NCBI RefSeq assembly: GCF_033568475.1 | Contig: NC_133121.1 | Coordinates: 195,124,664 to 195,188,663 of the forward strand | From: Henckelia pumila | Taxonomy: Eukaryota > Streptophyta > Magnoliopsida > Lamiales > Gesneriaceae | Reading direction: 5' to 3' | Length of the DNA stretch: 64,000 bases | Part shown: positions 3,614-63,633 of the stretch, piece by piece | Position numbering within the stretch: position 1 is the first letter of the stretch | How the letters are laid out: every line of letters starts with the position of its first letter | Made by a program: the position numbers and the translations under genes | The notes under the pieces: model-generated | Told to the model about the DNA's origin: nothing | Seen by the model: only the letters and a program-made list of their open reading frames with translations | Database searches by the model: none

Positions 3614-4913
3614 TGAACGCCTAAATCGGTGTGATAAAAATCTATTGGCAAGTGTACCAGATCAAGTAATCGATAGTGGACAAAGGTACAGATGTCGAAC
3701 CCACAGGGACTGTTATTTTGTAACTACCAAAATATGATTACTTCTAATTAATCTAGACTAGCCAATAAAAGTGATGAAATTTCAGATTTTAAACAAAGAA
3801 ATAACTTTGAAAATAAAATTAAATTAAATAAAACGCAGAAGAAAATTTGGATGAACTTCAAATATGAAAAAGCTCGATCAAGGACACACGTAGGTACCGA
3901 ACAAATCATGTAACAAGATTCAGGACTCAGATTTAATCTTAAATTACGGTGAATTCTCCTAACTTGTTTAAAAGTTTATTTCTAAAAAAATTAAACCTAT
4001 TCAAATATTGACGGATTAATTTTTCATAATTCTAATCAAATTCAAACGCATGAAGAACTGTGAGAATTCAGTTCGCACCTAAAACCGCACGATGAAATCA
4101 AATACTATTTCTAGTCAATTTTATCTCATGTTAATTATTAGAATGATCAAAATCTGTCGACTTAGAACCAATTAACATGCAAGCAAATAGTTGATCAGGC
4201 TATTCAAAAGATAAATATAAATATAACAATCAATAAAATAAAACAAAATCTGAAAAATCCCAAATAAACATTCATGTTTTCTACATGAATTTGTTCGGCC
4301 CAATCACGTGGCCTTGATCGAAAAAAAAGAACTAATAACATAATTCACAATAATAGTTTTCAATCCAAAACATCAACTAAAAATCAAAAATAAAAGAAAA
4401 GAAGAAGAACAGAATGGTAGATGATGAACTAGTTGCCTCTTGCCTCTTCAATCTCCTTGTAACCCTCAATCTGATAGAAAAAACGATACTTAAGTGCCCA
4501 CAAATCTCTAAAAGATAATGTCCATCACGAGCAATAGTTTCCAAAATAAAAAATTCTGCACGTCATTCTCGCTCGAGTGGAGAAAAGTCTCACTCGAGCG
4601 AGCACAACTCTGGAGCTTTCCGCATTTTCTACCTCGCTCGAGCGGACATATCACGCGCTCGAGCGAGAACAACTCTAGACTTTTCTCTTCAACATACCTC
4701 TCTCGAGCGAGCAAAACATGCGCTCGAGCGAGAACAAAGCTGTCCAAATCTTTGATTTTCTTGACATTCCCTATAAAATAAACCAGGAGACATTATGCAG
4801 ACAAATGCATGAAATATACTTAAACTGACTAAAAAAAACAACAATAACACATGAATTCATGCAAAAACTTTAATGAAACACCACAAAAATATGTATATAA
4901 AAAACATTTATCA
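3614..4913 (-). repeat. 3' LTR of element C
   Basis: On the minus strand it runs from TGATAAATG at 4913 to GGCGTTCA at 3614, 1300 bp with TG...CA ends. It matches the LTR at 31688-32986 along its length, including the GAATTTGTTCGGCCCAATCA block and the U5 motif with CCTGTGGG and TTGATC...GTACACTTGCC. It carries three complete CTCGAG dyads where the 5' LTR has two plus a collapsed one. Confidence 0.9.
4572..4728. promoter_or_regulatory. CTCGAG dyad array in the 3' LTR of element C
   Basis: Three dyads start at 4572, 4637 and 4702, a pitch of 65 bp. In each, two CTCGAG half-sites are separated by exactly 15 bp, so their centres are 21 bp apart. Each half-site usually extends to the 10-bp palindrome CGCTCGAGCG. 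The surrounding DNA is AT-rich. The position in the U3-like half of the LTR suggests a promoter element; that role is inferred. Confidence 0.7.
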
Positions 4914-4927
4914 ATTCCCCCATACTT
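4914..4927 (-). other. Polypurine tract of element C
   Basis: The minus strand reads AAGTATGGGGGAAT immediately before the TGATAAATG start of the 3' LTR. This is the expected site for priming plus-strand synthesis during reverse transcription. Confidence 0.8.
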
Positions 4928-6166
4928 AAGCCTTTTTCGCCCTCGAGCAAGACATGCAACAAAAAATATGCAAACAAAAACAAAATCAAGGATGAATCAT
5001 GAATAATATAGCCTCAGATAAGTTCCAACACCAACAACTAAAAATCACAACTGTTTCTGATTTTTCAAAATACACTGTCAATTTAGCGTGAACGTGTGTG
5101 TGTGTCATGCTATTCCAGTTTCATGCAACTTCAAAAGTGTTTGTCCTACGACTGCTTATTGACCTATGGAAAATCAGTGCAAGTGTCACAATCAAGCGCT
5201 CTTTCATCCTAACAATTCATAAGAAAAACATGAATTTGTTGAGATATATTACGCACCTCTGGATTTTGCATCCAGTTTTCTTAAGCCACAATAATTACCC
5301 GCAAATTTAGCTATAACTAAGATAGGATTCGAATTTCAATCCCCTCGTCTATAGCCCGGATGGAGCGACAATCTCATTTAACCTGCAAACTTAGCCATGG
5401 AAGAATGATTAGAATTTCAATCATTTTCCAAGCCCGAATAGAATTGTTAGATTAAAAATTTCAAATTTTTAACCTCATGGAATCCGCATACTTAGTTAAG
5501 AACAAGGTATTAGGATTTTAATCCCTTGCTCATAACTCGTATGGAGTTAATTTTATTTTCACAAAGATTGTCCTTAAAAAAATTTTAACAGGTGCGCTCA
5601 AGATCATACATGCAATGTTATAAAATCATCGGGACTCAAAAGAAACTATCATGAACAACAAACACCTATTGTCGTGCAATCGTCAAGCAAACACGAACTT
5701 TATTAATTACTTCGCTACATTTCACCAGTCTAACATGCGTGCTAAAAAGTATTCACGGGTCAACTAGCAGCTCCTCATGTCCAATCAAAAGCAACAATTT
5801 CCACAAAAAATATTTTAACAACTCCATCATCATGGACCAACATTCATCATTATACTTATGCACACAACGCAAACACGAAACAAAATGACATGATATGAAT
5901 ACGAACTATATGCACTGAACTAAACCATATGGATGCAAAACATAATGAGCAATGATCACAGAACAAAACTAAACCCCTCATACTTATCTAAAGCATTGCC
6001 CTCAATGCTCTAGAAACACGAACACAAACAACAAATGAAAAATAACAAATGCAAACAAATAAAATGCAAAACAAAACAAAAACTCCCCTGGTTTATGGTT
6101 GGGTGGGCGCATATATCATTATCCTCGTCATGCTCGGGTGGTGGCACTTGAAATTTAAGGGCAGTT
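4928..6166 (-). other. 3' UTR and end of ORF3 of element C
   Basis: No gene lies in this 1.2-kb stretch. From the right, about 6060-6166 encodes on the minus strand the acidic end of ORF3 (PPPEHDEDND), matching the end of ORF3 in element D (PPEAEEEDNADN). A conserved hairpin follows at 5991-6009, then a long 3' UTR alike in C, X and D (GTGCGCTCAAGATCAT at about 5592; several Rgattggaatt-type blocks at 5330-5560). Element A's first LTR starts at 6167, so A was inserted into the ORF3 tail of C. Confidence 0.7.
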
Positions 6167-6512
6167 TGATAAGTGTATTTTATACACTTAATTTATATAT
6201 GATTTTAATTGTTAATTATTGGCTTCGAGCAGATTTATGTTTGGGTTTTGTTGTTTTTGTGGTTGAAGGTAATTATTGAATTGTTGTAGAAAAGAAAAGA
6301 AAATAATAATTATTGATGAAATAAGGGAAAAATAGAGAAGAAAAGAAAGCTGAAGAGAAAAAGAAATAGAAGAGAAGCATGCTTATATCGTTCATGGGCT
6401 TTCTATTGGGCCTTTGTTGAAGAAAGTTAGCGCTTAAGAATAGCTAAAGAAGAAAGTGAGAGGCGTAATTGCGCTGTTGCTTGCAAGATTTGAAGATTGA
6501 AGATCGAGAAGT

Positions 6513-6552
6513 ATGCGCGCCCGCCTAGGATTTCTAGAGCGCCCGTGCATGA
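6513..6552. promoter_or_regulatory. Single CG-rich dyad in LTR1 of element A
   Basis: Two GCGCCCG half-sites lie 22 bp apart, start to start, with an AT-rich spacer. They sit about 70-110 bp upstream of the TATA box at 6622. LTR2 (about 14609-14644) and LTR3 (about 17601-17636) have the same arrangement with point changes. Confidence 0.55.
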
Positions 6553-6621
6553 CAATATTTCAGCGTTTTAATTATCACGTACAAGGAAACTTTGGGCTTT
6601 TGAATGGGCTTTTGGGTTATG

Positions 6622-6629
6622 TATAAAAA
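6622..6629 (+). promoter_or_regulatory. TATA box of element A LTR1
   Basis: TATAAAAA lies mid-LTR, where a Pol II promoter is expected. It is conserved in LTR2 at 14717-14724. Confidence 0.6.
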
Positions 6630-18196: not shown

Positions 18197-19284
18197 CTAG
18201 GTGCAGCATATTGGAACTGAAACGGTGGTGGATATGGAACCGCAGCGGGGTAAGATGATGTGTCTATACCAAGGTGAGTGGTTATCCCTCGGATCAGAGC
18301 ATCCATAGCTTGGGCATTCGCGGTATGGACGGTTATATACTTATTGTGATAATGAACAAAGGTCGTGAGTTCCTGCACCGAATCAGGAAGTGTGCGACGA
18401 TGGGGTGGAGGCGTATGTGATCCAGCAGCAGCACTTGAACTAGCTCGACCGCCCTACGGAAAATCTTTCGCTCTCTTCTCCTTCTTCTTATCTACAAGAG
18501 CTTTATCAATTGGTTTCCGCAGCTGCAACCACTCCTCATCTGCTCAAACTTGAACACCAAATTGAATATAGAGCTCTGAAATAATGGTTGGGAAGAAGAG
18601 GCCCACAGAGGGAGTGTAGATCGATCTCCGGATCTCACTGTGAATAACTCGGCCTACATTGATCGGCCACTCCAAATCCAGGGCATAAAGGAGAAGAGCG
18701 CTCGCCATATGCACGCCACTAGTATGGGAGATGGGCATCAATCTTTTCGAATTAAAATCAAACCAAGTAGATGGTTCCGCCAAGATAAAACGCTCTGGAA
18801 AATGCTGATACGAAAACGGGTCATGCCACGAAGCCTCTTCATAACACAGTTGTTCAATAATCTCATTGTAATCGGGGTTGGTCTTCAAACTCTGATATAG
18901 ACTATCATCAACTTTTGGAGTTTGAATCAAATCATTTATAGTATTTTCATCGAAATAAATAATTTTTCCCCAAACGTATGCTTTCCCATCCTCCCGTTCG
19001 GCTGCATCCGCATAAAATTCACGAACTAACGGAACAATGATAGCCTTTGGTTGCTTACAAAAGTTATCCCAATTTCGATGCCCAATCTCAATTGCAACTC
19101 GACTATCTCTAAAAGTAAACTCAACACCTCGTTCAGGAATAGGAGTTCTATTTAGCTTTGCGTGATCATACCTTTCTTTGGCCGCTTGGTCTACAAATTT
19201 TCCGGCAAGTCCCGATGATGAAGATGATGCCGGAACACACTAAGAAGATGATTCACTAGTGAGACGTGCTCTTTTGGGCGCCAT
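18197..19284 (-). pseudogene. ORF3 of element C, plant transposon-protein family (broken)
   Basis: The start is MAPKRARLTSE at 19284, the same beginning as ORF3 of D and F. A stop follows about 14 codons in. Beyond it the family blocks are readable: KERYDHAKLNRTPIPERG, KAIIVPLVREFYADAAERED, DGKAYVWGKIIYF, then W..F.....P.SH...V....ALLLYAL...INVGRVIHSEI. This resembles the Pfam family called putative plant transposon protein, whose function is unknown; the ORF sits where other Athila elements carry an env-like frame. Another stop follows FGVQV, then a lysine-rich part and a proline/glutamine-rich tail. The last codons lie at about 6060-6166, on the far side of element A. Confidence 0.8.
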
Positions 19285-19750
19285 ATGTAAGTATTAATTT
19301 AATTCCGGCACTATGGATCGGCAAGGCAGCAGACAGCGGTGCAGGTTAGGAGAATTGTGACTGTTCGGCGGATGGATATAGAGCAGGGATGGCACGGTGA
19401 CAGATGGAGGATATTGAGGCGGCAACAGTGAAAGAAATACTGGGCGGAGGCTGTGAAAATCGGTGGTCCAGAGTCTGAGGGGAAACAAGACAGTGAGAAC
19501 AGAGATGGAGTGGTGGTCGGTTGATGGAGAAGATGTAGGGACGGCGCTGCAGATGGAGGAGAAACGGTGGCTGAGATGGAGGATCTGTGGTGAACTTGTG
19601 ACGGTGATGAGTGGCACTTGAATCCTGAAATTTGAGAATGAAATAGAATTGTAAGAAGAAGATGGAGAATTTGGGGATTTATGGTTCACGAGAGAGAGAA
19701 AACAAATGAAGAAGAAAAGGAAAGAAGATCTCTGATATATCATGCAGATA
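19285..19750 (-). promoter_or_regulatory. Pyrimidine-rich leader upstream of ORF3 (element C)
   Basis: Between the dyad array and the ORF3 start the minus strand looks like a plant mRNA leader: CTTTTCTTCTTC-type runs, ATAAATCCCCAAATTCTCC, and a possible 3' splice site TCAAATTTCAG/GATTC near 19625. Element F has the same arrangement (55272-55545), including TCCAATTTGCAG/GTG. This suggests that ORF3 had its own transcript, from an internal promoter or by splicing. No TATA box is evident. The 149-codon frame read across this stretch is regarded as accidental. Confidence 0.45.
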
Positions 19751-19758
19751 TGGGCTTG

Positions 19759-19977
19759 CTCGAGCGCATAATATGCTCGCTCGAGAGAGGACTAAATTAT
19801 TCCAAAATCAGAGAATGTCTCGCTCGAGCGCACGAAAGTGCCGCTCGAGCGAGACTAAATTTTAAAAATTCCCAGAAAGTTTCTCGCTCGAGCGCCTGAT
19901 AAGGCTGCTCAAGCGAGACATTATGTTGTTCAAAACCAGAACTATGCTCGCTCGAGCGCATGAAAGTACCGCTCGAG
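19759..19977. promoter_or_regulatory. CTCGAG dyad array between pol and ORF3 (element C)
   Basis: Four dyads start at 19759, 19823, 19887 and 19951, a pitch of exactly 64 bp. Each has two half-sites (CTCGAG; one is CTCAAG) separated by exactly 15 bp. The intervening 37 bp are AT-rich and related between units, so this is also a diverged 64-bp tandem repeat. It lies about 180 bp after the integrase stop and 475 bp before the ORF3 start. Confidence 0.75.
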
Positions 19978-20094
19978 CGAGACTTTTATTTTTGAAAATT
20001 TTTTGGAAAAATAAAGAAAATTTAACAAAACTAATTTAAAACTCACTAAAACAACCGAAAATAAAATTTAATAAACTAACTGAAGGAAAAGACC

Positions 20095-20744: not shown

Positions 20745-22493
20745 CCGCTGATCGGACAAACTCACTCGATCGAGCGAGCTTGAAAATCAATTTCTTGGGT
20801 CTGCATCAATTTTGGCCTCGCTCGATCGGATGAGTTCCCAAAAGCTCGATTCTCTGTTTTCAAAATTTAAAGGCCTCGCTCGAACGGTGGAGTTCACACG
20901 ATCGAGCGGGCTCCTCTGCTTCAGAATCCTGCAGAATCATTTTTGCTGTCAAACTTTGGAAACTCAATCTCAATCCTGAAAAACCAACTCAAATCATGGT
21001 TTATAAAATTTTAAACATGCAGTTATACATGCAACAAGGCTTTAACATCAATTCATGCATTTCATACATCAAATTAATAGCTCAAAAAGTACAAAACTAC
21101 AAGTTATTCAACATATCATAAACAAACTTCAAATCTCAAGTTTCTTGCTAAGTTTTGATGCTATCTATCTACCATTCTTCAGCTTAAACCCGAGTCCACA
21201 CATGCTACATCTCTCTCCCGAGCTATCAATGTCGTCTTTGATTAGCTCCTGCCCCATCTGTTGACATGCACACATACAAAACAAAGCAACAGCCGGATAA
21301 ACTCCGGTGAGAATATAATTCCCAGTATAATCAACATATAAATGCGTTAAATAAATCATATCAACTCTAATCGTAATCGACTCAACAATAGAGTAAAATA
21401 ACGCATATCTCGATTAAGAATTGATTCATATATCGTCGTTGCCATCAAGATTCGTAACCGATCTTGACATGAATATCTATCTATCGTAGTCGTCTTAGAC
21501 TAAAAAATAATATCGCCTCAGATCTTGGCATAGAATCAATTCAATATAATATCATATCATAATCATATCGACTCAAACTCAAAGATCCACTACCTGAGAT
21601 GGATCGACAACATCAAAATAAAATCGAAAAGATAAACAAGTATGTGATTTTGGCAGGACAACTCAAGAAGCTTCATTCTTGAGTTTCAAATTCCTGACTT
21701 GCGATGTCGTCTTATACCTTCGTATTTTCTCTGTTTTGAATGCTTCAAATCTCAACTTCTTTTCGTCGGTTCGAATTCAAAGTTCTTGATTCATTAGCCT
21801 TCAAAACTAATATCAAATCGAAGTCCTTGTCGCAAGGATTTCAGAACAATTTTCGGAATCAAAATCGGACGAGCGGATCAAAAGTTACAAGGATTTGAAA
21901 ATCAAGGAAATCAAAAGAAATTGAAGATGGTCTCGGCTTACGTTCAGATTTCCAACTTCAATATAACTTGCACACGTATCAATTCTGATTTATCTAATTC
22001 AATCGGATATGTACTGCATAAATTGAAATTTAATCCCTGAGACTTCATAAATTGCAATTCAGTCCTCAGTCCTCTTTTTAATTCAATTTCAATCCTAAAT
22101 AATTTAAGAATATTAGAATTTAAATCGAAACTCTAAATATTTCCAAATTAAATATGCTCGGATTAGAATTAAAAATATACTTTGCACTTAAGCCCTTGAA
22201 ACTTCAATATTTACAAATCAGTCCCTAATCAGGTTGCATCTTTGAATTAAATCCTCTTTAATTCCCAAAACTTGGAATTTACATCTTAAATCCCATAAAT
22301 ATTCAAATCGAATATTTAATCTTTTAATTTAAGAATTCCCGAAATTTAAATCTCAAAATCCGTAAATTCTCAAATTAAATATTTTCGGCTCGGAAATTAA
22401 ATCTATAATTTCCATAAATTCTCAAATACATAAATTACAGAATTTAAATCTCAAATTTCGTAATTTATAACTTAATATTTTCTGGGCCTTACA
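20745..22493 (-). repeat. Chromovirus (Tekay-like) 3' LTR carried by the CACTA element
   Basis: On the minus strand it begins TGTAAGGCCC at 22493, directly after a polypurine tract (AGAGGGGAGGAAT, 22494-22506) and the TTTCGAGGATGAAATC motif that also precedes E's 3' LTR. The middle matches the LTR at 920-3016 and E's LTR (CCCCATCTGTTGACATG..., ACAGCCGGATAA). The far end near 20745 is uncertain. Confidence 0.65.
20757..20915. promoter_or_regulatory. CGATCG dyads near the end of the CACTA-borne chromovirus LTR
   Basis: About three imperfect units lie at about 20752-20780, 20820-20855 and 20880-20910, of the type CTCGAACGGT-8 nt-CACGATCGAG. They are the same class and in the same place, near the LTR 3' end, as in element E. 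Confidence 0.6.
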
Positions 22494-31687: not shown

Positions 31688-32986
31688 TGACTGCCTAAAT
31701 CGGTGTGATAAAAATATTTTGGCAAGCATACCAGGTCAAGTAATAGATAGTGGACAAAGGTCCAGATGTCGAAACCACAGGGAGTGTTATTTTGTAACTA
31801 CCAAAATATGATTACTTCTACTTAATCTAGACTAGCTAATAAAAGTGATGAAATTTCAGATTTTAAACTAAGAAATAACTTTGCAAATAAAATAAAATTA
31901 ATAAAACGCAGCAGAAAATTTGGATTAAATTCAAATATGAGAAAATCTCGATCAAGGACACACGTAGGTACCGAAAAAATCATGTAACAAGTAGCCGATT
32001 CAGGACTCAGATTTAATCTTAAATTACGGTGAATTCTCCTAATTTGTTTAAAGGTCTATTTCTAAAACAATTAAACCTATTCAAATATTGACGGATTAAT
32101 TTTTCATAATTCTAATCAAATTCAAACGCATGAAGAACTGTGATAATTCAGTTTGCACCTAAAACCGCACGATAAAATCGAATGCTATTTCCAGTCAATT
32201 TTACTTCGTGTTAATTATTAGAGTGATCAAAATCAATTCCTCCTCTGTCGACTTATAACCGATTAACATGCAAGCAAATAGTTGACCAGTCTATTCACAA
32301 AACAAATATAAATCTAAAAATCAATAAAATAAAACCAAATCTGAAAAATTCCAAATAAACATCCAAGTTTTCTACATGAATTTGTTCGGCCCAATCGCGT
32401 GGCCTTGATCGAAAAGAAAGAACTACTCAAGGTCTAATATAATTCACAATAATAGTTTTCAATCCCAAACATCAACTAAAAATCAAAAAGAAAAGAAAAA
32501 AAGAACATAATGGTAGATGATGAACTAGCCGCCTCTTGCCTCCTCAATCTCCTTGTAACCCTCAATCTAATGGAAAAACGATATTTAAGTACCCACAAAT
32601 CTCTAAAAGATAATGTCCATCACGAGCAAGAGTTTCCAAAATAAAAAATTATGCACATCATTCTCGCTCAAGCGAGAACAACTCTGGAGCTTTCCGCATT
32701 TTCTACCTCGCTCGAGCGGACATATCACACACTCGAGCGATAAAAACTATGAAATTTTCTCTTCAACATACCTCGCTCGAGTGAGCACAACATGCGCTCG
32801 AGCGAGAACAAAGCTGTCCAAATCATCAATTTTCTTGACATTCCCTATAAAATAAACCAGGAGACAGTATTCAAACAAATGCATGAAATATACTTAAACT
32901 GATTAACAAAAACAACAATAACACATGAATGCATGCAAAAACTTTAATGAAACACCACAAAATATGTATGTAAAACACATTTATCA
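31688..32986 (-). repeat. 5' LTR of element C
   Basis: TGATAAATGTG at 32986 to GGCAGTCA at 31688, 1299 bp, with the right target duplication AACTC at 32987. It is near-identical to the 3' LTR. Dyads are at about 32712 and 32776, and a collapsed single half-site (CTCAAG) at about 32668 replaces the first dyad. Confidence 0.9.
32665..32803. promoter_or_regulatory. CTCGAG dyads in the 5' LTR of element C
   Basis: Two full dyads have 15-bp spacers (CTCGAG-15-CTCGAG). The first unit is shortened by exactly 21 bp compared with the 3' LTR, leaving one half-site. Confidence 0.7.
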
Positions 32987-33858: not shown

Positions 33859-34858
33859 TGATTACCCCTTAATTCGGTTTAAATAAATTATATTGTAAAG
33901 CGTACCAGGTCAAGTTATAGTAAGTGGATAGAGAGTCCAAGTATAGATCTCACAGAGACTGTAGTAAATTCTAAATATTTAATTATTTTACTTAATCTAA
34001 ACAAAATAACAAAAAGGATGTGATGAGTTAAATAAAAATTTAATTACTAAAACAAATAAGAAATAAAATATCTAAAGGATAAATTTAATTAAAATGAGAC
34101 AACCAAGACACAAGCATGTACCAAACAAATTATGCAAACAAGTGGCAAATCTAGGATCCAGATTTAATGTTAAATCACGGCGAATTCTCTTAATTTATTT
34201 AACAGTATATTTCTAGAACAGTTAAACCTATTCAAATTTTCACAGATTAATTTTCATAATTCTAATCAAATTCAAATGCATTGGAAATTATGAGAATTCA
34301 GTTTTCACCTAAAACCGCATACTGAAACTAAATACTATTTCTAGTCGGTTTAACCATATGTCAATTATTGGAGTGATCGAAATTAATCTCTAATCTGTCG
34401 ACTCAGAATCAATTAACAAGAAAGTAAATAATTTATTAGATTATTCACAAGAACAAAACATAAATCCAACAACCAATAATCTTAATAAAAATCTAAAAAT
34501 CTCAAATCAAAATCCACATGTTCGATATAAAATTGTTCGGCCCAATATCGTCGTTTTGGTTGAAGAAATACTAATCAATAATTGAAAACAATATTCAACA
34601 AAAGTTTTAATCAACAAAAAATTAAGAAATAAAAGAGAAGAAAAGAAAATCTCCAAGCCTCTAGCCTCCTAGCTGCCTTCTCTCTATATTGTGATGTCCG
34701 GAACCCTTCATCTGATGTTAATTCTCCTATTTATACGTCCAAATACAAGAATTATTGGTTTCCTTCTCGCACAAGAATTTTCCCAATTTAGGACTCTGTA
34801 CGCTGTCTTGCTAGAGCAGTAGAAAATTCCCGCTCGAGCAAGAAACACTCTGCCAAAC
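33859..34858 (-). repeat. Truncated Athila-like LTR
   Basis: Its minus-strand end (CCGAATTAAGGGG...CA at 33859) and backbone match S2, S3 and C (GGTACGCTTTACAATATAATT, the TTGTTCGGCCCAATAT block). One decayed CTCGAG dyad lies at about 34812-34845. It joins X coding DNA directly, with no primer site, so it is a solo LTR or a deletion product. Its 5' end is lost at the junction with element D's LTR near 34858. Confidence 0.65.
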
Positions 34859-41828: not shown

Positions 41829-41841
41829 AGAGAGGGAGAAT
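41829..41841 (+). other. Polypurine tract of element E
   Basis: AGAGAGGGAGAAT stands directly before the 3' LTR. The upstream TTTCGAGGACGAAATCTC motif is shared with the CACTA-borne chromovirus. Confidence 0.85.
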
Positions 41842-43881
41842 TGTAACACCCCGAAATTATCTTAATTGAGTTTATTTGAGATAATTGGAGATTATAGAAT
41901 TCAAGAGCCGATTTTTTTTTATCAGGGTCTATTTTGCAATTTTTGAAATTTTCAGGGACTAAAATGCAGGATTTTTTATATTATTTGGACTTGGATAATA
42001 ATTGACTTAGTCTCAATTGTTTCCTTCATCCCTTCCAAACATGATTCCTCCATTGAAGATGCCACAAAGTTTCTTTAAGCTCTGTGATTTTATTTTCCGG
42101 TCGATCCATCCGTTAGAATTTATTTTGAAGGCAGATTCGTAATCCCGGCAGCAAAAGCTTTGTTCTATCGTAAGTATTTCTCCGATTAGTTATAATTCAA
42201 TTTTCGGATGTTGTTAGAATCGAATGAGTTTTGGTTATGATGTTCTTGAGCTAGTTCTTATCGTTTATTCTCAGTCGATTTTGAAAAAGAGCGTCGTTCG
42301 AAATTGTTAGGATTTTTGGAAGCTTATTTCGAAAAATTGGATTTTGAGATTTGTTGGATTGAAATTTTTATTGATGTTTTAGCATTGTATTGAGTTGATT
42401 GTGATGTTATACTGATGTCTGTGTTTCCGGTTTGATCAGAATATAGTCGTTATGCCGCCGGTTTGAGTTTTGGGATTTTGATTCGTTTGAATTGTCAAAC
42501 CATTGGCAGTTGGGTTTGATTGTCATTGTTGACCTCCTTTTGTCTTCGTACAGATTTTTTCAAAGTTGTTTGAGCCCAGAGTTAGCAGTAATCGATCGTC
42601 GAAGAGTTGGACGAAGAGCAGTAAAGAGTTTTACCTTGAGCATTTGTTTTAGTGGTTGTATGGTTTTTGACATAACCTATTATTGTAGCTTATCTAGAGT
42701 TGGAGCTATCTGAATCTTAAGATACAAGCAGACATCGTTTAAGCGGGATAGAACACTCAAGACAGATGGTTCTTGACTTTTCCTTAAATCACATACTTGC
42801 ATCAATACTTGTTCTAGAATGGGGAACTTGTATTTTGTTGATTAACTCTTGTTATTAGTTGAATTATGGATTAATTCTTGTGTTTCTATATGCATTAATC
42901 TTGAGCCAAATCTTTGATTTCAGCGGGCTGTACGACCCTTTTTGTTTAGACATTTTGGGGGCTATATTGTGAGTGGACTGGGTTGTAGAAGTTCACCTAG
43001 TGTCAGCATACTCCTTGTAGTCGCACAAAAGTCTAGAGGATGGAGATACGTGACACCACCTCGATCGGGAGAGTCGGTGGGTTGTTTACTTGATCTCATC
43101 CTCAGGATCCCAAAAGAATAGCAAAAATTCCTTCATTATCAGAGTTGATATCCCGGTTTTAAAGACATGTATTTCATTCGTATTAGCATTGAATATGTTG
43201 TCTTTATTTCATGTTATTGAGATATTACTTGTTACTGCATGTTATGTTACTTTTACTCGGAATATCTTTCTCACCGGAGTTATCCGGCTATTGATTTGTT
43301 TTGTATGTGTACTTGGCAACATGTGGGGCAGGATCGAGTTAGCGGAGACTTGGTTAGCATCAAGATCGAGAGATAGAAATGGGACTCGGTTTACAAGTCA
43401 AACAGCATGTCAATCTAGTTATATGTTGGAACATGTTTAGAACTCGAACTTGTTGTTTATGTTGTATTGATTATGCGAGTATTGAGGTTTGTATGTTGTT
43501 GTTGCATGTATTTTGTACGTCATTATGTATTAAATGGATTTATGTAGTTGAAGTTGGTAAGTTTATTTCTGGAAATTTGTTCAGAGTTGCCCTCTCTCGA
43601 TCGGTAGAGTTTGACCAATCGAGCGAGATGTATGTAGCCTCATTTCTGTTTTTCAAAGCCTTTCCCGCTCGATCGGTTGAGTTTTACCAATCGAGCGGAG
43701 CTGGTCCTTGAGGCGGACAGCAGCAGGGCAGAACTTGCCCTCTCTATCGGTTGTGTTTTACCGATCGAGCGAGGCATTGTTAACCAAAAAAATAAAAAAA
43801 ATTATTTGACTTATCAATTGGTTTATCTCAGCTTATTGTTTCAAGTATCCGAGATTAGATGTTTAGAACCGAGGTCTCACA
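41842..43881 (+). repeat. 3' LTR of element E
   Basis: TGTAACACCCCGAAATTATC to GAGGTCTCACA, 2040 bp. It aligns with the 5' LTR but is longer, mainly because of a third dyad unit at about 43697-43770. The C-to-T change in CGCCCC is one of several methylation-type differences. Confidence 0.92.
43596..43769. promoter_or_regulatory. CGATCG dyads in the 3' LTR of element E
   Basis: Three units start at 43596, 43668 and 43742 (pitch 72 and 74 bp). All have an 8-nt loop; several arms carry one C-to-T or G-to-A change (ACCAATCGAG). Confidence 0.7.
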
Positions 43882-50134: not shown

Positions 50135-50247
50135 GTTTTTCGTCTTATTTTCCTTATTTTATTTTCATGTTTGTTGTTTATTTTGCTTGTTTTTATTTTG
50201 GTTTTCTTTTTGAAAAATTACAAAAATAAAATTATTTTTTTTATCCG

Positions 50248-50420
50248 CTCGATCGGTCATATTGCACCGATCGAGCAAAATTTTATGTGTCTTGCAGGAA
50301 TCTCTATGTTTTTGTCTCGCTCGATCGGTCATCTTTAACCGATCGAGCGAGAATTTATCTGCCCTCTTACAAGTTTTGAATTTTGTGGCTTGCTCGATCG
50401 GTCATCTTTAACCGATCGAG
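50248..50420. promoter_or_regulatory. CGATCG dyad array between pol and ORF3 (element D)
   Basis: Three perfect inverted repeats CTCGATCGGT-8 nt-ACCGATCGAG start at 50248, 50320 and 50393 (pitch 72 and 73 bp). Arms, loop length and pitch equal those in the LTRs of chromovirus E. The array stands about 450 bp before the ORF3 start, as in C and F. Confidence 0.75.
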
Positions 50421-50434
50421 CGAGACTACTGCTG

Positions 50435-50871
50435 AGCGATTTAAATCGTGATTTTCTCCCTTCCTTTCTATTCTTTCTTCCCTCTTTTCGTTTAAATCCC
50501 TAAATCCCCAAAACCCTTCACCACACTTCTCTCAACCAATTTACCCTATATTCGCAAGAATCACTACTATATCTCCGGTCATCCCCTTCGTCTAGAAGGC
50601 TCTCACGTCGTGTATCTGAGTTCGCCGGCCACCTCCTCTCTCAGACGCCGCACGCCTCCTTCAATCCTGCCCGTTCCGGATGCCGCTTCTCTCCACCTCC
50701 ACCCTGCTCTGAGTTTGCCGGCCGTTTCTTTGCTTTCTGTCATTCATGGGCTTCACACACATACCAGCCGGTTTCCGCCCCTGTCCCCCCTTCCGGCCAC
50801 TACTTGGGTCTTAGTAGACGCCACCTCCATTCACCGCACCGTGTTCTACGTCTCTCTACTTCCGATCAATC
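50435..50871 (+). promoter_or_regulatory. Pyrimidine-rich leader upstream of ORF3 (element D)
   Basis: CTCCCTTCCTTTCTATTCTTTC, then TAAATCCCTAAATCCCCAAAACCC and a C/T-rich stretch, resemble a plant gene leader with a pyrimidine patch. Open frames crossing it (from 50610) have no domain and are probably chance. It supports the idea of a separate ORF3 transcript. Confidence 0.4.
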
Positions 50872-51045
50872 ATGGGACCCAAACGAGCTCGTCTCACCGG
50901 CGAGTATTCTAATCCATGCTCCGCGGCGCCTGTCTCTTCACAAGCCCTTGCCGGCAAATTTGTTAGCCAAGTGGAACATGATCGGTATGATCACGCCAAG
51001 GTACACCGCTCTCCTATTCCCAAATGTGGATTTGAACTCGCCTAT

Positions 51046-52442
51046 TGACCGGCTAAATCGGTTTGATAAAAATCTACTGGCAAGCGCACCAGGTCAAATA
51101 ATAGTAAAGTGGACAGAGAGTCCAAGTATCGATCCCACAGGAACTGCAGTCAATTCTCAAGAATTAATTATTTTACTTAATCTAGACAAAATAATAAAAA
51201 ATATTTTGAATTAAATAAAATAAGAATATAAAATAAAAACTGCTTAAGAAATACGAATAAAAATAACTAAAGATAAAAATAATTAAAATAAAGACAACCA
51301 AGACACACGTAGGTACCGAACAAATCATGTAACATGTAGTCGATTCAGGACTCAGATTTAATCTTAATTAAGGGGAATTCTCCTAATTTGTTCAAAGGTC
51401 TATTTCTAGAACAATCAAACCTATTCAAATATTGATGAACTAATATTTCGTAATTCTAATCAAATTTGAATGCATTAAATATTTGTGAAAATTCAGTTTA
51501 CACCTAAACCGCACACTGAAACCGAATTCTATTTCTAGTCGGTTTTACAATATGTTAATTATCAGAGTGATCAAAATCAAAATCTCCTGTGTCGATTTGG
51601 AATTGATTAACATGCAAGCAAACAGTTGATCAGACTATTCACAAGACAATTATAAATCTGACAATCAATAAAATAAAATCAACTCTAAAAAATCCCAAAC
51701 AAACATCCAAGTTTTCTACATAAATTTGTTCGGCCCAATCACGCCGTCTTGGTTGAAAATAAACTACTCAATAATTAAAAATAATAATTCAAAAATAAAA
51801 ATAAGAAGAAGAAAAGAAAAGAAAAGAGAAATCTTCTCTCCCAAGCCTTGTAGCCGCCTCCTCTTGCGTTCTCTGCGCTCTGGAGCTTCCGAAACCCTCA
51901 AAAATATGTTATATCTTGTATATATATGGTCCGGAACGCCTACCAGTTAATTTCCTCTCAAAATAAGGATTTTTCGGAACACATATGACCCCCGAACACG
52001 CGCGCGCGCACGCGCCATAGGCCTCGCGCGCGCGCAGCACATAAAAACAGAGGCCTGTACGTCGGACTCGCGCGCGCGCGAGCTTGATTCTCGCGCGCGC
52101 GTAGTACAAAAAATCTGCGCCGAGCGACAATTTTCAAAAATTTATATTTCGAGATCTAGCCGTCGGATTGAGCTGAAATTTGGACAGCTGCTTCAAAACA
52201 TCTTTAACTTTAATCTGAACGGTGCAGATTGGATTTCAATATTTCTAAAATTAAATATGATTTTTCGATCAAGACTGCTCCGTAATTCACTCTTCAAAAA
52301 TCCATTTTCCTACAAAATTAACCCAAGGAGTGAAATACACACACATGCACTAAAACACATAAAAATACATAAAAATAATATGAATGCACACAAAATAAAC
52401 ATAAAAATAACATGAAATAATGCATACAAAATGCACTTATCA
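51046..52442 (-). mobile_element. Solo LTR S2 inside ORF3 of element D
   Basis: 1397 bp, from TGATAAGTGCATTTTG at 52442 to CCGGTCA at 51046 on the minus strand, with perfect duplications CCTAT (51041-51045 and 52443-52447). It has the same backbone as C and S3 (TTGTTCGGCCCAATCACG block; U5 block CCTGTGGGATCGATACTTGG). A TATATATA lies at about 51919-51927. Confidence 0.93.
51997..52107. promoter_or_regulatory. CGCG dyads in solo LTR S2
   Basis: Two pairs of CG runs: about 51998-52040 (GCGCGCGCACGCGCC facing CTCGCGCGCGCGC) and about 52069-52103 (CTCGCGCGCGCGCGAG then CTCGCGCGCGCG, 23 bp apart). They are about 70-190 bp upstream of the likely TATA box. Confidence 0.6.
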
Positions 52443-52741
52443 CCTATTCTGATAGCGAGGTTTATCGTTTTATTGCACAATGTGGTTGGGAATTCTTTTG
52501 TAAACCACCGCAAGCCGTTGTCGTTCCTATTTTACGTGAATTTTACGCCAATGCTGCGGAGAGGACAGATGAAAAAGCCTTTGTTCGGGGCAAACTGATT
52601 TCTTTTGAGCCGAATGAGTTGAATTCTCTACTTGATCCGGCTTCTTTTTCGGCTATACCATTCCCGCCTCCTTTCCAATTCCAATACGCCAACCCTGTCC
52701 TTCCACCTGAGGCCGAAGAGGAGGACAACGCCGACAATTAA

Positions 52742-53600: not shown

Positions 53601-53608
53601 TTCACCCG

Positions 53609-53708
53609 CTCGATCTGCTAAACTCAACCGATCGAGCGACCAAAAGAAGAAAAGCAAGAGATGAAACAGAAAAAATCTCGCTCGATCTGCTAAACTTCAC
53701 CGATCGAA
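53609..53708. promoter_or_regulatory. CGATCG dyads upstream of the TATA box in D's 3' LTR
   Basis: Two units CTCGATCTGC-8 nt-ACCGATCGAG start at 53609 and 53681, exactly 72 bp apart. The left arm is a variant (CTGC for CGGT). A TATA-like CTATATTTAA follows at 53771-53780. Confidence 0.65.
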
Positions 53709-53770
53709 CGAGATGCGCAGTTCGGGAAATAATTTCAGAAAAAGGAAATTTTTCTTTTGAGGACTCTAGT

Positions 53771-53780
53771 CTATATTTAA
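53771..53780 (+). promoter_or_regulatory. Likely TATA box of D's 3' LTR
   Basis: CTATATTTAA lies about 60 bp after the dyads. Confidence 0.45.
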
Positions 53781-53797: not shown

Positions 53798-54727
53798 TTA
53801 CCTATCTTTTATCAGACTTAGACGTGGGAGAACGCAGAAGAACGCTTGGCGGCTAGGTTTTATTTTTAATTTCTCTTAGACTTCTTATCTTCTTTTGATT
53901 TTTCTTGCGAATTTTCATGAATATTTGTGGCTAGACTTTAGAACTTGGTTGAGGAAGACAAGCCCTTGAATTTTTTTATTTGTGAGATTCGAATTCTCAG
54001 TGTTTGATTATTATTGAGTATCAAAAGTTGTTTTGGATTATTTTATGCTTGTATGTGATATTTTCGGATTGATCACCCTAAGATTTCGCTTTACAATCTA
54101 CTGCTAAATTAGAATTCAAATCTGTAATTGTTTGAATCTCCTAATTTGTGAAGCAACTGCAATTAATAGTTTTCCTCTTGTGAATTTATTAATTTGTAGG
54201 AACAACGATTGACTAGATTAAATACATCCGCTTGGGTATGTGTAATCTAGATTCATCAGTTTTACTAGTTTGAATAATGCCTTGGATTTAAATTTAATCG
54301 CTTGTATTGGGTTGATTCATTGGTAAGGGTTAATTTAAAACGTTTGTGTCTAGTTAACTAAGATTAAGGTGAAACAGGAATTAAATTTTCAATGATGAAT
54401 ATTCAATTAGGATTAATTATTTTTAGATAATCGATGATCAAATGAATAATTTCAAGGGTCTAGTCAACCGATACCAAGGCTTGTTTTCAATTGATTTCTC
54501 ATAATTTTAAATCTTGCACGCTAGTGATAATATTTGATTTTAAATTGCTTTAAATTTTTAGTAGTTAATTTCAAAACTCAAACCCCCTTTTATTTTATTT
54601 TAGTAATTTTTAAGTAAACGATAAATTTCACTTTCCTCGTGGGAACGATCTCTACTCTCACTGCAGCATACTTTATTTATCTGAGTTGAGTCGGGTAATT
54701 TGGGTGCGACACGACTAAGCATTACCA
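53798..54727 (+). repeat. 3' LTR of element D (supported part)
   Basis: TTACCTATCTTTTATCAGAC to CTAAGCATTACCA matches the 5' LTR pieces at 34859-34904 and 43882-44768. The LTR certainly starts further left, because the 5' copy is truncated there. The unbroken AGAACGCTTGG at 53839 shows the original site into which E inserted in the other LTR. Confidence 0.88.
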
Positions 54728-55271
54728 GGGACACCGGTAACATCTGTCTAGCCACAAAGGCATACCACAACGCCGACTCAATCTTTAAAAAGCGCTCAGG
54801 AAAATTCATGAATTTAATTGGATCAAACCACTGAACACTTTCATAACACAACTCATGTATAATCATATGATAATCTAGATTATACTTCAAATTTATATAC
54901 TGACTGTCATCCACAGCCGGGGTTTCCAACAAAGTATTCAATGTATCCGCATCAAATGAAACAAGCTTCCCTCGAACCACGGCTTTACTGTCATCACGAG
55001 CGGCGGCATTGGCATAGAATTCCCGAACCATCGGAACAATGGCGGCTTTGGGTTGAGCACAATATTTTGTCCATTGATGCATTGCAATAGACTCCGCAAG
55101 ATGGGTATGACAATCTAAGGAAATAACACGCTCCGGAATAGGATTTCTATTGAGTTTTGCATGGTCATACCTCACTTGTGCCTTCACCGAAACGAAATGT
55201 TCGGAGTGGGTGGTGGATGAAGATGATGAAGCTCCGGCATGTCCCACGGTACGCGCCTTCTTGGGTGCCAT
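54728..55271 (-). pseudogene. ORF3 of element F (3' truncated)
   Basis: The start is MAPKKARTVGHAGASSSSS at 55271. It is open for about 180 codons: QVRYDHAKLNRNPIPERVIS, AIVPMVREFYANAAARDDSK, VVRGKLVSFDADTLNTLLE, TPAVDDSQYINLKYNLDY, WFDPIKFMNFPERFL and WYAFVARQMLPVS. It is the best-preserved N-terminal half of this family here. It is cut by D's LTR before the LLY...INVG region, which is seen in C. Function unknown; a serine-rich, basic start is shared by all three copies. Confidence 0.85.
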
Positions 55272-55545
55272 GAAAGTATAAGAAGAAAACACGAAGCAAT
55301 TGATTCAAACCCGGCTTGTAGAGGTTGAATCCGCAACAAAAATGCCTAAAATCCGCAACAAAAAGATGGTGGATGAAGAATTCTCCTTGGACACCTGCAA
55401 ATTGGAGTGAATTTGAGATGAAAGTGTGGAAATTTGGTGAAATTAGGGGAAGGGACAAAATTGGGGGTTTATGGATTGAGTGAATTGAGAGAGAAGGGTG
55501 AAAGAAGAAGAAGAAGAAAAGCCTGCATATACGTGACAGAAGAGT
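55272..55545 (-). promoter_or_regulatory. Pyrimidine-rich leader upstream of ORF3 (element F)
   Basis: The minus strand has CTTTTCTTCTTCTTCTTCTTT, ATAAACCCCCAATTTTG and a possible 3' splice site CCAATTTGCAG/GTG near 55400, parallel to element C's leader. The 97-codon frame across it is probably not coding. Confidence 0.45.
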
Positions 55546-55550
55546 TCGCG

Positions 55551-55716
55551 CTTGAGCGGGAGAAATTCCCGCTCGAGCGTGAAAGTTTTCAAAAGAAAAC
55601 CTTTGGGACAGAGGGTTTCGCGCTCGAGCAAGAAAAGGTTCCGCTCAAGCACGCATATTTAAGTCGTATACTAGCCAGAAACTTTCATGCTCAAGCGAGA
55701 GAAAGCTCCGCTCGAG
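55551..55716. promoter_or_regulatory. CTCGAG dyad array between pol and ORF3 (element F)
   Basis: Three dyads start at 55551, 55623 and 55690. Each pair of half-sites (CTCGAG, CTTGAG or CTCAAG) is separated by exactly 15 bp, and the spacer reads like CGNGAGAAANNTCCCG. The array begins where integrase should end. Confidence 0.75.
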
Positions 55717-56820
55717 TGCAAAAAAAAAAAATTTGGGTCCTGCAAATCGATCGTGGTCTGGATTTTATCCATACTTTCTCCACGATAAATTTTCAACCTT
55801 TGACCATTAACCTTAAATTCGCCAGTTGTAGGACTTGTAATATCCACAGTGCCATATGGTAAAACTTGCGTGATTGTGAATAGTCCTGACCACCTCGAGT
55901 GCAATTTACCTGGCATAAGCTTCAAACACGAGTTAAATAATAATAATTGTTGGCCCACTTCGAACTCACGGGAGATTATATTCTGATCATGCCATATTTT
56001 GGTTTTTTCTTTATAATTCCTCGCACTCTCATATGCATCCAATCTGAGCTCATCTAGCTCATTCAGCTGCAACATCCGCTCCACGCCTATAGCATTAACA
56101 TCAAAATTAAGAATTTAGTAGCCCATAAAGCTTTATGTTCAAGTTCAACAGGAAGATGACATATTTTTCTGTATAACAACCTAAAAGAAGATGTGCTTAT
56201 AGGTGTTTTAAATGCAGTGTGATAGGCCCATAAGCATCATCTAATTTATTGGACCACTCTGTTCTATTGGAATTCATGGTCTTTTCCAATATTCTTTTCA
56301 ATTCCCTATTTGACACTTCAACTTGTACACTGGTTTGGGGGTGATAAGCTATTGTCACCTTATCTGTGACCCCGTACTTACTCAATAATATGTCAAATTT
56401 ATGATTACAAAAGTGAGTTCCTCCATCACTAATAATGGCCCTAGGTGTTCCATATCTTGCAAACATAATTTTTTTCAAAAATTTCACAACCACCTTAAAG
56501 TCATTAGTTCTACAAGCAAGTGCCTCTACCCACTTAGACACGTAATCCACCGCTACCAATATATATTTATGCCCCTCAGACACGGGAAATGGTCCCATAA
56601 AATCAATGCCCCACACATCGAAAACTTCACACACAAGAATATTATTCAAAGGCATCTCGTGTATCCTAGAAATATTCCCAACTCGCTGGCACTCATCACA
56701 TGCAAGCACATAGTTATACGCATCTTTAAACAGTGAAGGCCAATAAAACCCCGATTGGAGAACTTTAGCAGCGGTTCTACCCGCTTCAAAATTTCCTCCA
56801 GTCGGTCATGCGTGACAATG
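55671..56820 (-). pseudogene. Integrase of element F
   Basis: The zinc-binding end is degraded (CHA, stop, [27 protein letters not shown]). The core triad lies in [25 protein letters not shown] and [11 protein letters not shown] frameshift near 56230 follows NKLDDA. The C-terminal part reads RLDAYESARNYKEKTKIWHD, REFEVGQQLLLFNSCLKLMP and GEFKVNGQRLKIYRGESMD. The normal stop (element C ends LQDPKN) is lost, so the frame runs on into the dyad array and ends at 55671 with a tail encoded by dyad DNA. Confidence 0.9.
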
Positions 56821-60639: not shown

Positions 60640-60745
60640 AGCTGAAGCGCCCTAGGGGCTCTTCAGCTCCCGACGTCTTTTTTTTTCGAGAAGCTTTGAA
60701 GTCGAGAAGTGCCCCAGCACCTAAAACGAAGCGCTCCAGCGCTGC
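60640..60745. promoter_or_regulatory. CG-rich paired motifs in solo LTR S3
   Basis: GTGCCCCAGCAC and GCGCTCCAGCGC, two near-palindromes 22 bp apart start to start, lie near 60709-60742. An imperfect dyad CTGAAGCGCC...GGGGCTCTTCAG precedes at 60643-60667. They are 85-180 bp upstream of the TATA box. Confidence 0.5.
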
Positions 60746-62154: not shown

Positions 62155-62398
62155 CTATTCCTCTGATTCTGAATCAAGCTCTAGATTGATATTTCTCCTA
62201 GCTCTCCGAATTATGCTGAGTGTGCGCTCGATCTCCAAGTCAAGTGGCACAAGATCTTTGGCAGGTCGAGTGTTGTGCATACACGAGCAGAAAGTACCTA
62301 AAAATCAAAAACAAGAGAAAGGATCAGAATTCAATAACTAAAAGCGTAAAATAAAATTCTAGTCTCAAGTAAAATAAAAATTTTGATATCAATATCAG

Positions 62399-62416
62399 TC
62401 CCTGGCAACGGCGCCA
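62399..62416 (-). other. Primer binding site of element F (tRNA-Asp type)
   Basis: The minus strand reads TGGCGCCGTTGCCAGGGA, 6 bp from the LTR. One mismatch to the tRNA-Asp complement. Confidence 0.9.
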
Positions 62417-63327
62417 AAAACTTGACCAACCGATTCAGTATTAAATAAATTCTAGCAAGTATACTAGGTCAAGTAATAGTAAGTGGACGATGAGTCCAAG
62501 TGTCAAACCCACAGGGACTGATTTTTGTGATTACCAAAATATGATTATTTGTGCTTAATCTAGACCAAGCAAAATAAGATGATTTGATTAATTTAATTAA
62601 AACTGAAATTACAAATAAATTACTAGTAAAATAAATTAAATCCAAATAAGAACGCAGCAAGACTTTGGGTAATAAATTCAATTAAGAAAAACTCAATCAA
62701 GACACATGCAGGTACCGAACAAATCATGCAAACATGTGGTAAATCTAGGATCCACATTAAATCTTAAATTACAACGGATTCTCCTAAATTGTTTAACAGT
62801 ATATTTCTAGAACATGTTAAACATATTCAAATATTGACGGATTAATTATCTCTAAGTAATGTTAATCAATTTCAAATGCATTAGGAACTATGAGAATTCA
62901 GTTTTTACCTAAAACCGCATACTGAAACCGAATACTATTTTTAGTCGGTTTAACCGTATATCAATTATTGGAGTGATCAAAATTAACTCCTAATCTTTTG
63001 ACTAAGAATCAATTAACAAGCAAGTAAATAATTGGCCAGACTATTCACAAGAACAAAATATAAATCCAAAAATCGATAATTTTAATAAAAGTCTGAAAAT
63101 CCCAAACAAACATCCACTGTTTAACAATAACTATTCGGCCCAATCTCGCGGCCTCAATCGAATAAAAACGACTACTCACAAATCAACATAGTTCTCAAAC
63201 AAAGTTTTCAACCATAAAATTAAAAATAAAAAGAAGAAAATAGAATTCTTCACTCCAATCTTCAGATGCAGCCGCCTCTGTTTGTCAAGAACTGGAACTG
63301 GGAACCCTCAAAATATGTTAAAATCTT

Positions 63328-63336
63328 CTATTTATA
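63328..63336 (-). promoter_or_regulatory. TATA box of element F LTR
   Basis: The minus strand reads TATAAATAG; the nearest CTCGAG dyad is about 75 bp upstream. Confidence 0.6.
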
Positions 63337-63410
63337 TGGTCTGAATCCCGAAATAATAGATTTCCTTCCGCATAGAGAATCTTCCAAAATATTGCTTTCA
63401 CGAAATTGCA

Positions 63411-63633
63411 CTCGAGCGATAGAATGTCCCGCTCGAGCGCGATATTTTCTTCAACTTACTGGAATTCCTCTCGCGCTCGAGCGGGAAAAAGTCCCGCTCC
63501 AGCGCAACATTTTTTGCAATATATTGGAAATCGACTCGCGCTCTCGCGAGATAAAGTTCCACTTGAGCGCGCCATTTTATACCATCTTTTGTCTCATTAG
63601 CTCGCGCTCAAGCAAGAGAAAGTCTCGCTCGTG
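63411..63633. promoter_or_regulatory. CTCGAG dyad array in the LTR of element F
   Basis: Four dyads start at 63411, 63476, 63541 and 63607 (pitch 65, 65, 66 bp). All spacers are 15 bp. Half-sites have drifted in places (CTCCAG, CTCTCG, CTTGAG, CTCGTG), yet spacing has not. Confidence 0.75.

What the first reader, a model, noticed from the sequence alone, without database searches (positions are those of the whole stretch)
4572..63633. CTCGAG dyads with an invariant 21-bp half-site spacing
Across the LTRs of C and F and the pol-ORF3 gaps of C and F, 16 full pairs (4572, 4637, 4702; about 32712, 32776; 19759, 19823, 19887, 19951; 55551, 55623, 55690; 63411, 63476, 63541, 63607) all have 15 bp between half-sites. 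Half-site bases and spacer bases have drifted, but spacing has not. A 21-bp period is two DNA turns, so both palindromes face the same side of the helix, as expected for cooperative binding of a dimeric protein. Arrays repeat every 64-72 bp. I know of no named element of this form.
Basis: partly seen in the sequence, partly recalled or inferred. Interest (0 to 1): 0.88.

Follow-up and report, generated by a model that had tools for sequence, protein, structure and literature searches.

The report
Paired promoter palindromes in plant retrotransposons
Short mirror-image DNA sites, nearly always about two turns of the helix apart, sit in rows in front of the promoters of several plant retrotransposon families; they look like docking sites for an unknown paired regulatory protein and occur thousands of times in this plant genome.

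Summary
CTCGAG-N15-CTCGAG occurs 15 times in the window at ≤2 mismatches (0.81 expected); the sixteenth named pair has 3. Each pair is one inverted repeat, with arms of about 12 bp around an 11-nt loop, in tandem arrays. CTCGAG is not the invariant: elements D and E carry arms without it, and that form (CTCGATCG-N12-CGATCGAG) has 15,264 exact places genome-wide, control 16. Genome-wide CTCGAG spacings are N14 798, N15 3,321, N16 3,312, N17 160: held near two helical turns, not invariantly 21. Arrays lie in U3 upstream of TATA in Athila-like Ty3/gypsy LTRs and again 5' of ORF3 (PF20167); within C, E and F the arm version agrees between the two sites. Other Ty3/gypsy lineages carry such arrays too. 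Closest precedent: the palindromic repeated motifs of Sireviruses (Ty1/copia; PMC2829016), in the same two places. Best reading: a DNA-level regulatory module bound by a dimeric factor, host- or element-encoded. Binding and function are untested. New variant of a known kind.

The parts
4568..4732 (-). Element C, 3' LTR (U3): three dyads, CTCGAG type, spacing 21, period 65
32707..32806 (-). Element C, 5' LTR (U3): two dyads; a third, just beside them, has lost 21 bp
19755..19984 (-). Element C, pol-ORF3 gap: four dyads, CTCGAG type, spacing 21, period 64
55545..55722 (-). Element F, pol-ORF3 gap: three dyads, CTCGAG type with CGCG flanks, spacing 21, periods 72 and 67
63405..63643 (-). Element F, 5' LTR (U3): four dyads, CTCGAG type with CGCG flanks, spacing 21, periods 65-66; the third (63541) has 3 mismatches to the CTCGAG pair
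50245..50424 (+). Element E, pol-ORF3 gap: three dyads of the other arm version (CTCGATCGGT-N8-ACCGATCGAG), spacing 22
53607..53714 (+). Element E, 3' LTR (U3): two dyads, arms CGCTCGATC / GATCGAGCG, spacing 22 where scored
36665..36770 (+). Element D (another Ty3/gypsy lineage), 5' LTR: two dyads with the arms of element E, spacing 22
43592..43770 (+). Element D, 3' LTR: the same array, decayed
52000..52101 (-). LTR at 51.0-52.4 kb: two GC-rich inverted repeats of CGCGCG type at the equivalent place upstream of TATA
60640..60668 (+). LTR at 60.3-61.7 kb: one inverted repeat upstream of TATA
34806..34843 (-). LTR at 33.9-34.9 kb: one decayed dyad, 71 bp upstream of TATA
20765..20910 (.). Decayed CTCGATCG/CTCGAACG dyads in the insertion inside element C
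63329..63336 (-). TATA box of the F 5' LTR, 69 bp past the array in element orientation
53774..53780 (+). TATA-like box of the E 3' LTR, 60 bp past the array
51919..51926 (-). TATA box of the LTR at 51 kb, 74 bp past the array
19732..19741 (-). Putative TATA-like site between the C gap array and ORF3, followed by a pyrimidine-rich leader (weak)
55523..55532 (-). Putative TATA-like site between the F gap array and ORF3 (weak)
50440..50446 (+). Putative TATA-like site after the E gap array (weak)
18544..19239 (-). ORF3 of element C, PF20167 (E 1.4e-34)
54600..55304 (-). Frame with ORF3 of element F, PF20167 (E 9.2e-19); its last 43 residues belong to the inserted E-type LTR
50917..52633 (+). ORF3 of element E in two pieces (50917-51045 and 52442-52633), split by the LTR at 51.0-52.4 kb

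Best explanation
The pairs are inverted-repeat half-sites of about 12 bp, 21-22 bp apart centre to centre (two helical turns), strung in tandem arrays. They form a promoter-proximal regulatory module of plant LTR retrotransposons. In Athila-like Ty3/gypsy elements one array lies in U3 upstream of the LTR TATA box and a second, with the same arm version, lies 5' of ORF3, probably at an internal promoter. Proposed mechanism: a dimeric DNA-binding factor recognises the two half-sites of a dyad on one face of the helix, and arrays raise its occupancy and so switch on, or shield from silencing, both transcription units together. Shown: the dyads, their place, the bounded spacing, drift of loops and between-dyad spacers against conserved arms, and matching arms at the two sites in C, E and F. 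Inferred: protein binding, the internal promoter and the regulatory effect. Whether the factor is host- or element-encoded is open; arrays in lineages with no ORF3 seen here favour a host factor or exchange of arrays between elements.
For: Place: a GC- and CpG-rich stretch lies roughly 75-275 bp upstream of TATA in the Athila-like LTRs, and the last scored dyad ends 60-75 bp before TATA in 5 of 8 LTRs with a scored inverted repeat (C3, F5, G51, LTR34, E3). In the three gaps a TATA-like site lies 13-18 bp on. Spacing: N14 798, N15 3,321, N16 3,312, N17 160 genome-wide; 81 of 82 dyads at 21-22 with 12-31 scanned; between-dyad gaps vary from 35 to 47, one overlapping pair set aside. Arms against spacers: mean arm identity 0.915, loops 0.42. 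Between-dyad spacers resemble each other by place (C-LTR with F-LTR mean z 1.3-1.5, C-gap with F-gap mean z 1.2) and not within an element (mean z -0.4 to -0.2), whereas arms agree within an element: LTR-gap identity C 0.83, F 0.75, E 0.81, against 0.61-0.70 between LTRs and 0.68-0.76 between gaps of different elements. Two fetched elements, L156 and L167, also carry an array 5' of ORF3 and one downstream of it, presumably in the 3' LTR; L167 has 22-bp spacing in both. Precedent: Sirevirus repeated motifs in the same two places.
Against: No binding, expression or methylation data. LTR-to-gap agreement rests on three window elements; with three the smallest possible permutation P is 1/6, and the margin in F is thin (0.75 against 0.73 for C-gap with F-gap). 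D agrees with E as well as E agrees with itself (0.81-0.84). In 3 of 8 LTRs the last scored dyad lies 120-190 bp from TATA (C5, G60, A10). TATA sites were picked by eye among pattern matches, and those of C are weak. B LTRs have no array, only one short repeat in one copy, and no excess structure. Shuffles found no excess in A10 or B5. Structure is only weak in the E, G51, G60 and A10 U3 regions (z -1.1 to -3.1). D carries arrays near the 3' end of its LTR with no TATA-like match there. Swapping halves among the 16 CTCGAG dyads gave no significant covariation (flank P 0.085, core 0.34, inner 0.78). Fetched loci were selected by N15 or N16 sites, all on contig C1.
Confidence: 0.5

Rival explanations
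1. RNA hairpins. U3 of the 3' LTR and the pol-ORF3 gap are both in the genomic transcript, so the arrays fold into stem-loops that feed small RNAs or govern splicing, packaging or RNA stability.
For: 220-nt array regions of the C and F LTRs and the three gaps fold far better than 60 dinucleotide shuffles (z -4.2 to -15.6; neighbouring regions -2.5 to +2.3). Symmetry often runs into the 'spacer': shuffling the inner nucleotides weakens the fold (window z -4.5 and -4.05, N14 z -9.6 and -7.9, N16 z -8.8 and -6.7). An excess of small RNAs maps to maize Sirevirus palindromes (passage in PMC10760457).
Against: Both strands fold alike, and wobble against A-C mismatches in the window dyads show no clear sense bias (my tally). 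A hairpin gives no reason for a bounded loop length. The 5' LTR arrays lie upstream of TATA, outside the main transcript. Inner complementarity is weak in the 42 distinct N15 dyads listed from contig C1 (z -2.3 and -2.1) and for the innermost 8 nt of the CGATCG form (8 of 200 shuffles as good).
Confidence: 0.2
2. Neutral tandem amplification and homogenisation: arrays expand by slippage, and the palindromes persist by descent and array turnover with no function.
For: Head-to-tail tandem repeats; one dyad shortened by a 21-bp deletion between the two C LTRs, as direct-repeat recombination would give; single palindromes without a partner in L156 (read).
Against: Loops and between-dyad spacers have drifted much further than arms; 21 and 22 bp mix inside arrays but other spacings hardly occur; arrays recur upstream of TATA in divergent LTRs.
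Confidence: 0.17
3. One reading: two CTCGAG palindromes bound cooperatively at an invariant 21 bp.
For: 16 of 16 named pairs have N15; N15 is tenfold above its control genome-wide.
Against: N16 is equally common. The form with 15,264 places has no CTCGAG, and its half-site is not a palindrome about the same centre. Symmetry extends through the flanks.
Confidence: 0.05
4. A shared cassette spread by recombination or template switching between co-resident retrotransposons, with function secondary.
For: D and E, with different primer sites and protein lineages, have 14-nt arms in common; array loci with pol genes of several Ty3/gypsy lineages; L167 shares loop letters between its two arrays.
Against: Between-dyad spacers are not shared within an element.
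Confidence: 0.08

Closest known systems
Repeated motifs (RMs) of Sirevirus LTR retrotransposons (Bousios et al. 2010, PMC2829016; section 9 read whole, other sections in passages)
   Same: Palindromic motifs in several copies, CpG-rich, in the upper half of the LTR shortly upstream of TATA, with further copies upstream of the envelope-like gene; sequence differs between elements. The CGATCGGT...ACCGATCG form also holds the CGG-CCG signature named there.
   Different: Sireviruses are Ty1/copia; these are Ty3/gypsy. RMs are listed as 10-20 bp palindromes with short centres; these have arms of about 12 bp, a loop of 10-12 nt and a bounded 21-22-bp spacing. The CTCGAG form lacks CGG-CCG. Copies per element are fewer (5-7 counted by the paper's scheme, against at least 8).
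VANC target motifs of VANDAL transposons (PMC5735166 passages; PMC10398659 outline and abstract)
   Same: Short motifs in tandem repeats of non-coding regions, differing between related elements, proposed to evolve with a trans factor.
   Different: Those targets come with a known TE-encoded anti-silencing protein; the words palindrom* and inverted do not occur in the main text of PMC5735166; no factor is known here.
[quoted passage not shown]
   Same: Family-specific tandem repeats between pol and the 3' LTR of Ty3/gypsy elements.
   Different: In the passages read, no symmetry, no known function and no matching array in U3 are named.
[quoted passage not shown] 2016, seen only as cited in PMC10760457)
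   Same: Palindrome clusters in the LTR regulatory region.
   Different: Different superfamily; no small-RNA data here.

Membership tests
Sirevirus RM | Ty1/copia element (INT before RT) | tested here: not met
   RT, RNase H, INT in that order in C, D, E and F (Pfam), the Ty3/gypsy order
Sirevirus RM | Palindromic motif in U3 shortly upstream of TATA | tested here: met
   C, F, E, G51, G60 and LTR34; not A10 or B5 by the shuffle test
Sirevirus RM | At least 8 copies per element | tested here: not met
   3' LTR or the one LTR seen plus gap: C 3+4, F 4+3, E 2+3
Sirevirus RM | Extra copies upstream of the env-like gene | tested here: met
   arrays between pol and ORF3 in C, E and F; also L156 and L167
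Sirevirus RM | CGG-CCG core | tested here: inconclusive
   present in the CGATCGGT...ACCGATCG form, absent from the CTCGAG core
Sirevirus RM | RM clusters define CpG islands | tested here: inconclusive
   CpG count per 25 bp peaks in the arrays; no formal island prediction
Athila lineage (C, E, F) | Ty3/gypsy gene order with an extra ORF between pol and 3' LTR | tested here: met
   RT, RNase H, INT, then ORF3 in C, E (split by an insertion) and F
Athila lineage (C, E, F) | Primer binding site TGGCGCCGTTGCC type (tRNA-Asp) | tested here: inconclusive
   the motif is at the C and F 5' LTR ends and a variant in E; that it marks Athila is recalled
Athila lineage (C, E, F) | RT phylogeny | not tested
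   no plant reference set in these tools
VANC/VANDAL system | TE-encoded protein that binds the motif and removes silencing marks | not testable with these tools
   ORF3 has no convincing PDB relative (best E 0.73) and its model is unusable (pLDDT 41)

The most novel reading that the evidence does not exclude
Several Ty3/gypsy lineages of one plant genome use a common code of inverted half-sites two helical turns apart, read by a dimeric factor.
Probability: 0.2. Interest if true: 0.8.

Novelty: new variant of a known kind. Interest (0 to 1): 0.55.

Why it matters
Palindromic promoter arrays paired with arrays at an envelope-like gene were described for Ty1/copia Sireviruses. The same layout in Ty3/gypsy elements points to convergence or exchange, and the bounded two-turn spacing gives a concrete clue to a dimeric factor that can be tested by binding and reporter assays. 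It also bears on how ORF3 of plant env-like elements is expressed.

Tried and rejected
ORF3 and RNase H found no confirmed relatives there, and ORF3 none at E <= 0.001 among predicted proteins. ORF3 function: no convincing PDB relative and a model too poor to compare by fold. Rfam at gathering scores: two 5S rRNA genes in the window and nothing else. RNA-strand bias: none clear. Half-swap covariation among CTCGAG dyads: not significant. The lineage of D was not named: no chromodomain search was run. Literature on the arm letters: the 10 rows listed of 148 are laboratory and disease papers, probably oligos with the XhoI site; none was read. For a Ty3/gypsy counterpart I looked at the listings and saw none; that does not prove that none is in print. 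A count of 14-bp palindromes (23 in 20 loci) is not used as evidence of loop loss, since many are arms of 22-bp dyads.

Not answered: genome-wide counts of CTCGAGCG-N{13,27}-CGCTCGAG and of CTCGATCG-N11-CGATCGAG, and the ORF3 protein search of the genome. So the spacing of the CGATCG form is known genome-wide at N12 alone.
Full report
What was checked. It is a nest of LTR retrotransposons. LTR ends were set from self-comparison and by eye.

The observation. CTCGAG-N15-CTCGAG is present at the named places: 15 matches at <=2 mismatches against 0.81 expected, and the sixteenth with 3. It is far beyond chance.

What the unit is. The match continues outside and inside CTCGAG in inverted orientation: 14-bp arms around an 11-nt loop at 19817-19855. 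Pairs from position -4 to +7 (0-5 being CTCGAG) are Watson-Crick in 11 to 16 of 16 dyads. Element C has T-A at position -3 in 9 of 9 dyads; F has G-C there in 5 of 7, a two-sided change that keeps the pair. The D LTR and the E gap hold the same kind of array with CTCGCTCGATCGGT arms and an 8-nt loop, with no CTCGAG; the E LTR has shorter arms of that version. So CTCGAG is one version of a half-site, not the rule. Against 200 dinucleotide shuffles each, 12 of 14 tested regions have an excess of inverted repeats (at most 1 shuffle as good); A10 and B5 have none.

Genome-wide spacing. Exact counts with the control of the tool (pattern read backwards): N13 430/119, N14 798/265, N15 3,321/337, N16 3,312/264, N17 160/105. 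Of the 50 rows listed for N13, 1 has the CG...CG arms, the rest mostly one dispersed repeat; for N17, 16 of 50. The other version, CTCGATCG-N12-CGATCGAG, has 15,264 places against 16; its other spacings could not be counted. The tool calls counts of repeats lower bounds, and copies of one family count many times. In 24 loci (20 chosen by N15 sites, 4 by N15 or N16 sites) plus the window, a scan of spacings 12 to 31 found 82 dyads with arms >=10/12 complementary: 47 at 21, 34 at 22, 1 at 13; six arrays mix 21 and 22. Ties were resolved towards 21. In 20 of those loci plus the window, 40 distinct 11-nt loops have 0.42 mean identity against 0.33 shuffled, arms 0.915, and between-dyad gaps range from 35 to 47, one overlapping pair set aside. 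A loop that has lost most of its sequence but not its length is what selection on spacing would give; re-copying inside arrays could mimic part of it.

Is the 'spacer' free? In part. Shuffling the inner nucleotides weakens the fold in window dyads (z -4.5 sense, -4.05 antisense), in 45 distinct N14 dyads (-9.6, -7.9), 40 N16 dyads (-8.8, -6.7) and 39 of the CGATCG form (-11.0, -9.3, but for the innermost 8 nt alone 8 of 200 shuffles do as well), and little in 42 N15 dyads from contig C1 (-2.3, -2.1). These are the distinct ones among the 50-57 rows listed, from the start of contig C1. Dyads are not independent, so the figures are descriptive.

Where it sits. In element orientation the arrays form a GC- and CpG-rich stretch upstream of TATA. 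End of last scored dyad to TATA: C3 75, F5 69, G51 74, LTR34 71, E3 60; C5 120, G60 157, A10 190. The TATA site was picked by eye among pattern matches; in C it is weak. B LTRs have no array. RNAfold z of the 220 bp upstream of TATA is strong in C and F LTRs and all three gaps (-4.2 to -15.6), weak in E, G51, G60 and A10 LTRs (-1.1 to -3.1) and near zero in B. The second site is the gap between pol and ORF3, where a TATA-like site and a pyrimidine-rich leader follow within 13-18 bp; this could also be read as a splice acceptor region. ORF3 matches PF20167 in C and F; in E it is present in two pieces, split by an LTR insertion. In two fetched loci, L156 and L167, an array lies between INT and ORF3 and another downstream of ORF3, presumably in the 3' LTR; in L156 the latter is followed by CATATAAATATC.

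Two sites, one arm. Half-arm majority letters are TCTCGCTCGAGCG in both C arrays, TCGCGCTCGAGCG in both F arrays, and end in CTCGATCGG (gap) and CTCGATCTG (LTR; 3 half-arms only) in E. LTR-gap identity within an element is C 0.83, F 0.75, E 0.81; between elements 0.61-0.70 for LTRs and 0.68-0.76 for gaps. Between-dyad spacers go the other way: C-LTR with F-LTR mean z 1.3-1.5 (best 4.2), C-gap with F-gap mean 1.2 (best 2.8), LTR with gap of the same element -0.4 to -0.2. The sample is small and the F margin thin. D agrees with E at 0.81-0.84 although its pol differs (RT 35-42%, INT 24-25% identical to the Athila-like ones), and array loci on contig C1 include several Ty3/gypsy lineages, so the arrays are not tied to ORF3.

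Mechanism. I read the arrays as DNA-level regulatory modules bound by a dimeric factor, for the place, the bounded spacing and the drift pattern. RNA hairpins are the main rival; nothing here excludes them. Binding, promoter activity and methylation were not tested.

Known work. Bousios et al. 2010 (PMC2829016; section 9 whole, passages elsewhere) describe palindromic repeated motifs in Sirevirus LTRs upstream of TATA with extra copies upstream of the envelope gene, and take this as support for an internal promoter. That is the same plan in another superfamily. VANC targets (PMC5735166 passages, PMC10398659 abstract) are tandem motifs with a TE-encoded binder. A maize study (PMC10760457 passages) cites small RNAs over Sirevirus palindromes. 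The word Athila and its primer site are recalled; no RT tree was made.

Verdict. A real and strongly over-represented feature whose first description was right in fact and half right in reading: new as a Ty3/gypsy variant with bounded two-turn spacing, not a new kind.

Noticed in passing
38-156 and 551-669 (-): Two 5S rRNA genes (Rfam RF00001), 513 bp apart start to start, next to the nested retrotransposons.
   Followed up: no
6165-7588, 14259-15686, 17253-18196: Element B has three LTR-like copies with a shared stretch (12769-15202 like 15766-18196), as in a tandem LTR retrotransposon. Its U3 is GC-rich upstream of TATA but has no inverted-repeat array.
   Followed up: partly
34900-43881: Element D, another Ty3/gypsy lineage, appears to lie inside the 5' LTR of element E and carries dyads with E's arms.
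   Followed up: partly
54603-54729 (-): The last 43 residues of the F ORF3 frame come from an inserted E-type LTR (86% like 44772-44644), so this frame is a fusion with LTR sequence.
   Followed up: no
26112-26393: Tandem array with 44-, 88- and 132-bp periods, and an inverted repeat CCGAAGTAAAA/TTTTACTTCGG at 26363-26391.
   Followed up: no
L156:3600-3720 and 6690-6720: Single palindromes without a partner (CTCGCTCAAGCGAG, CTCGCTCGAGCGAG), as a 21-22-bp deletion inside a dyad would leave; the C 5' LTR shows one such deletion.
   Followed up: partly
G000 contig C1, N13 hits: A dispersed repeat of the form CTCGAGAATCTCAA[AT]CTCGCTCGAG makes up many of the N13 rows listed.
   Followed up: no
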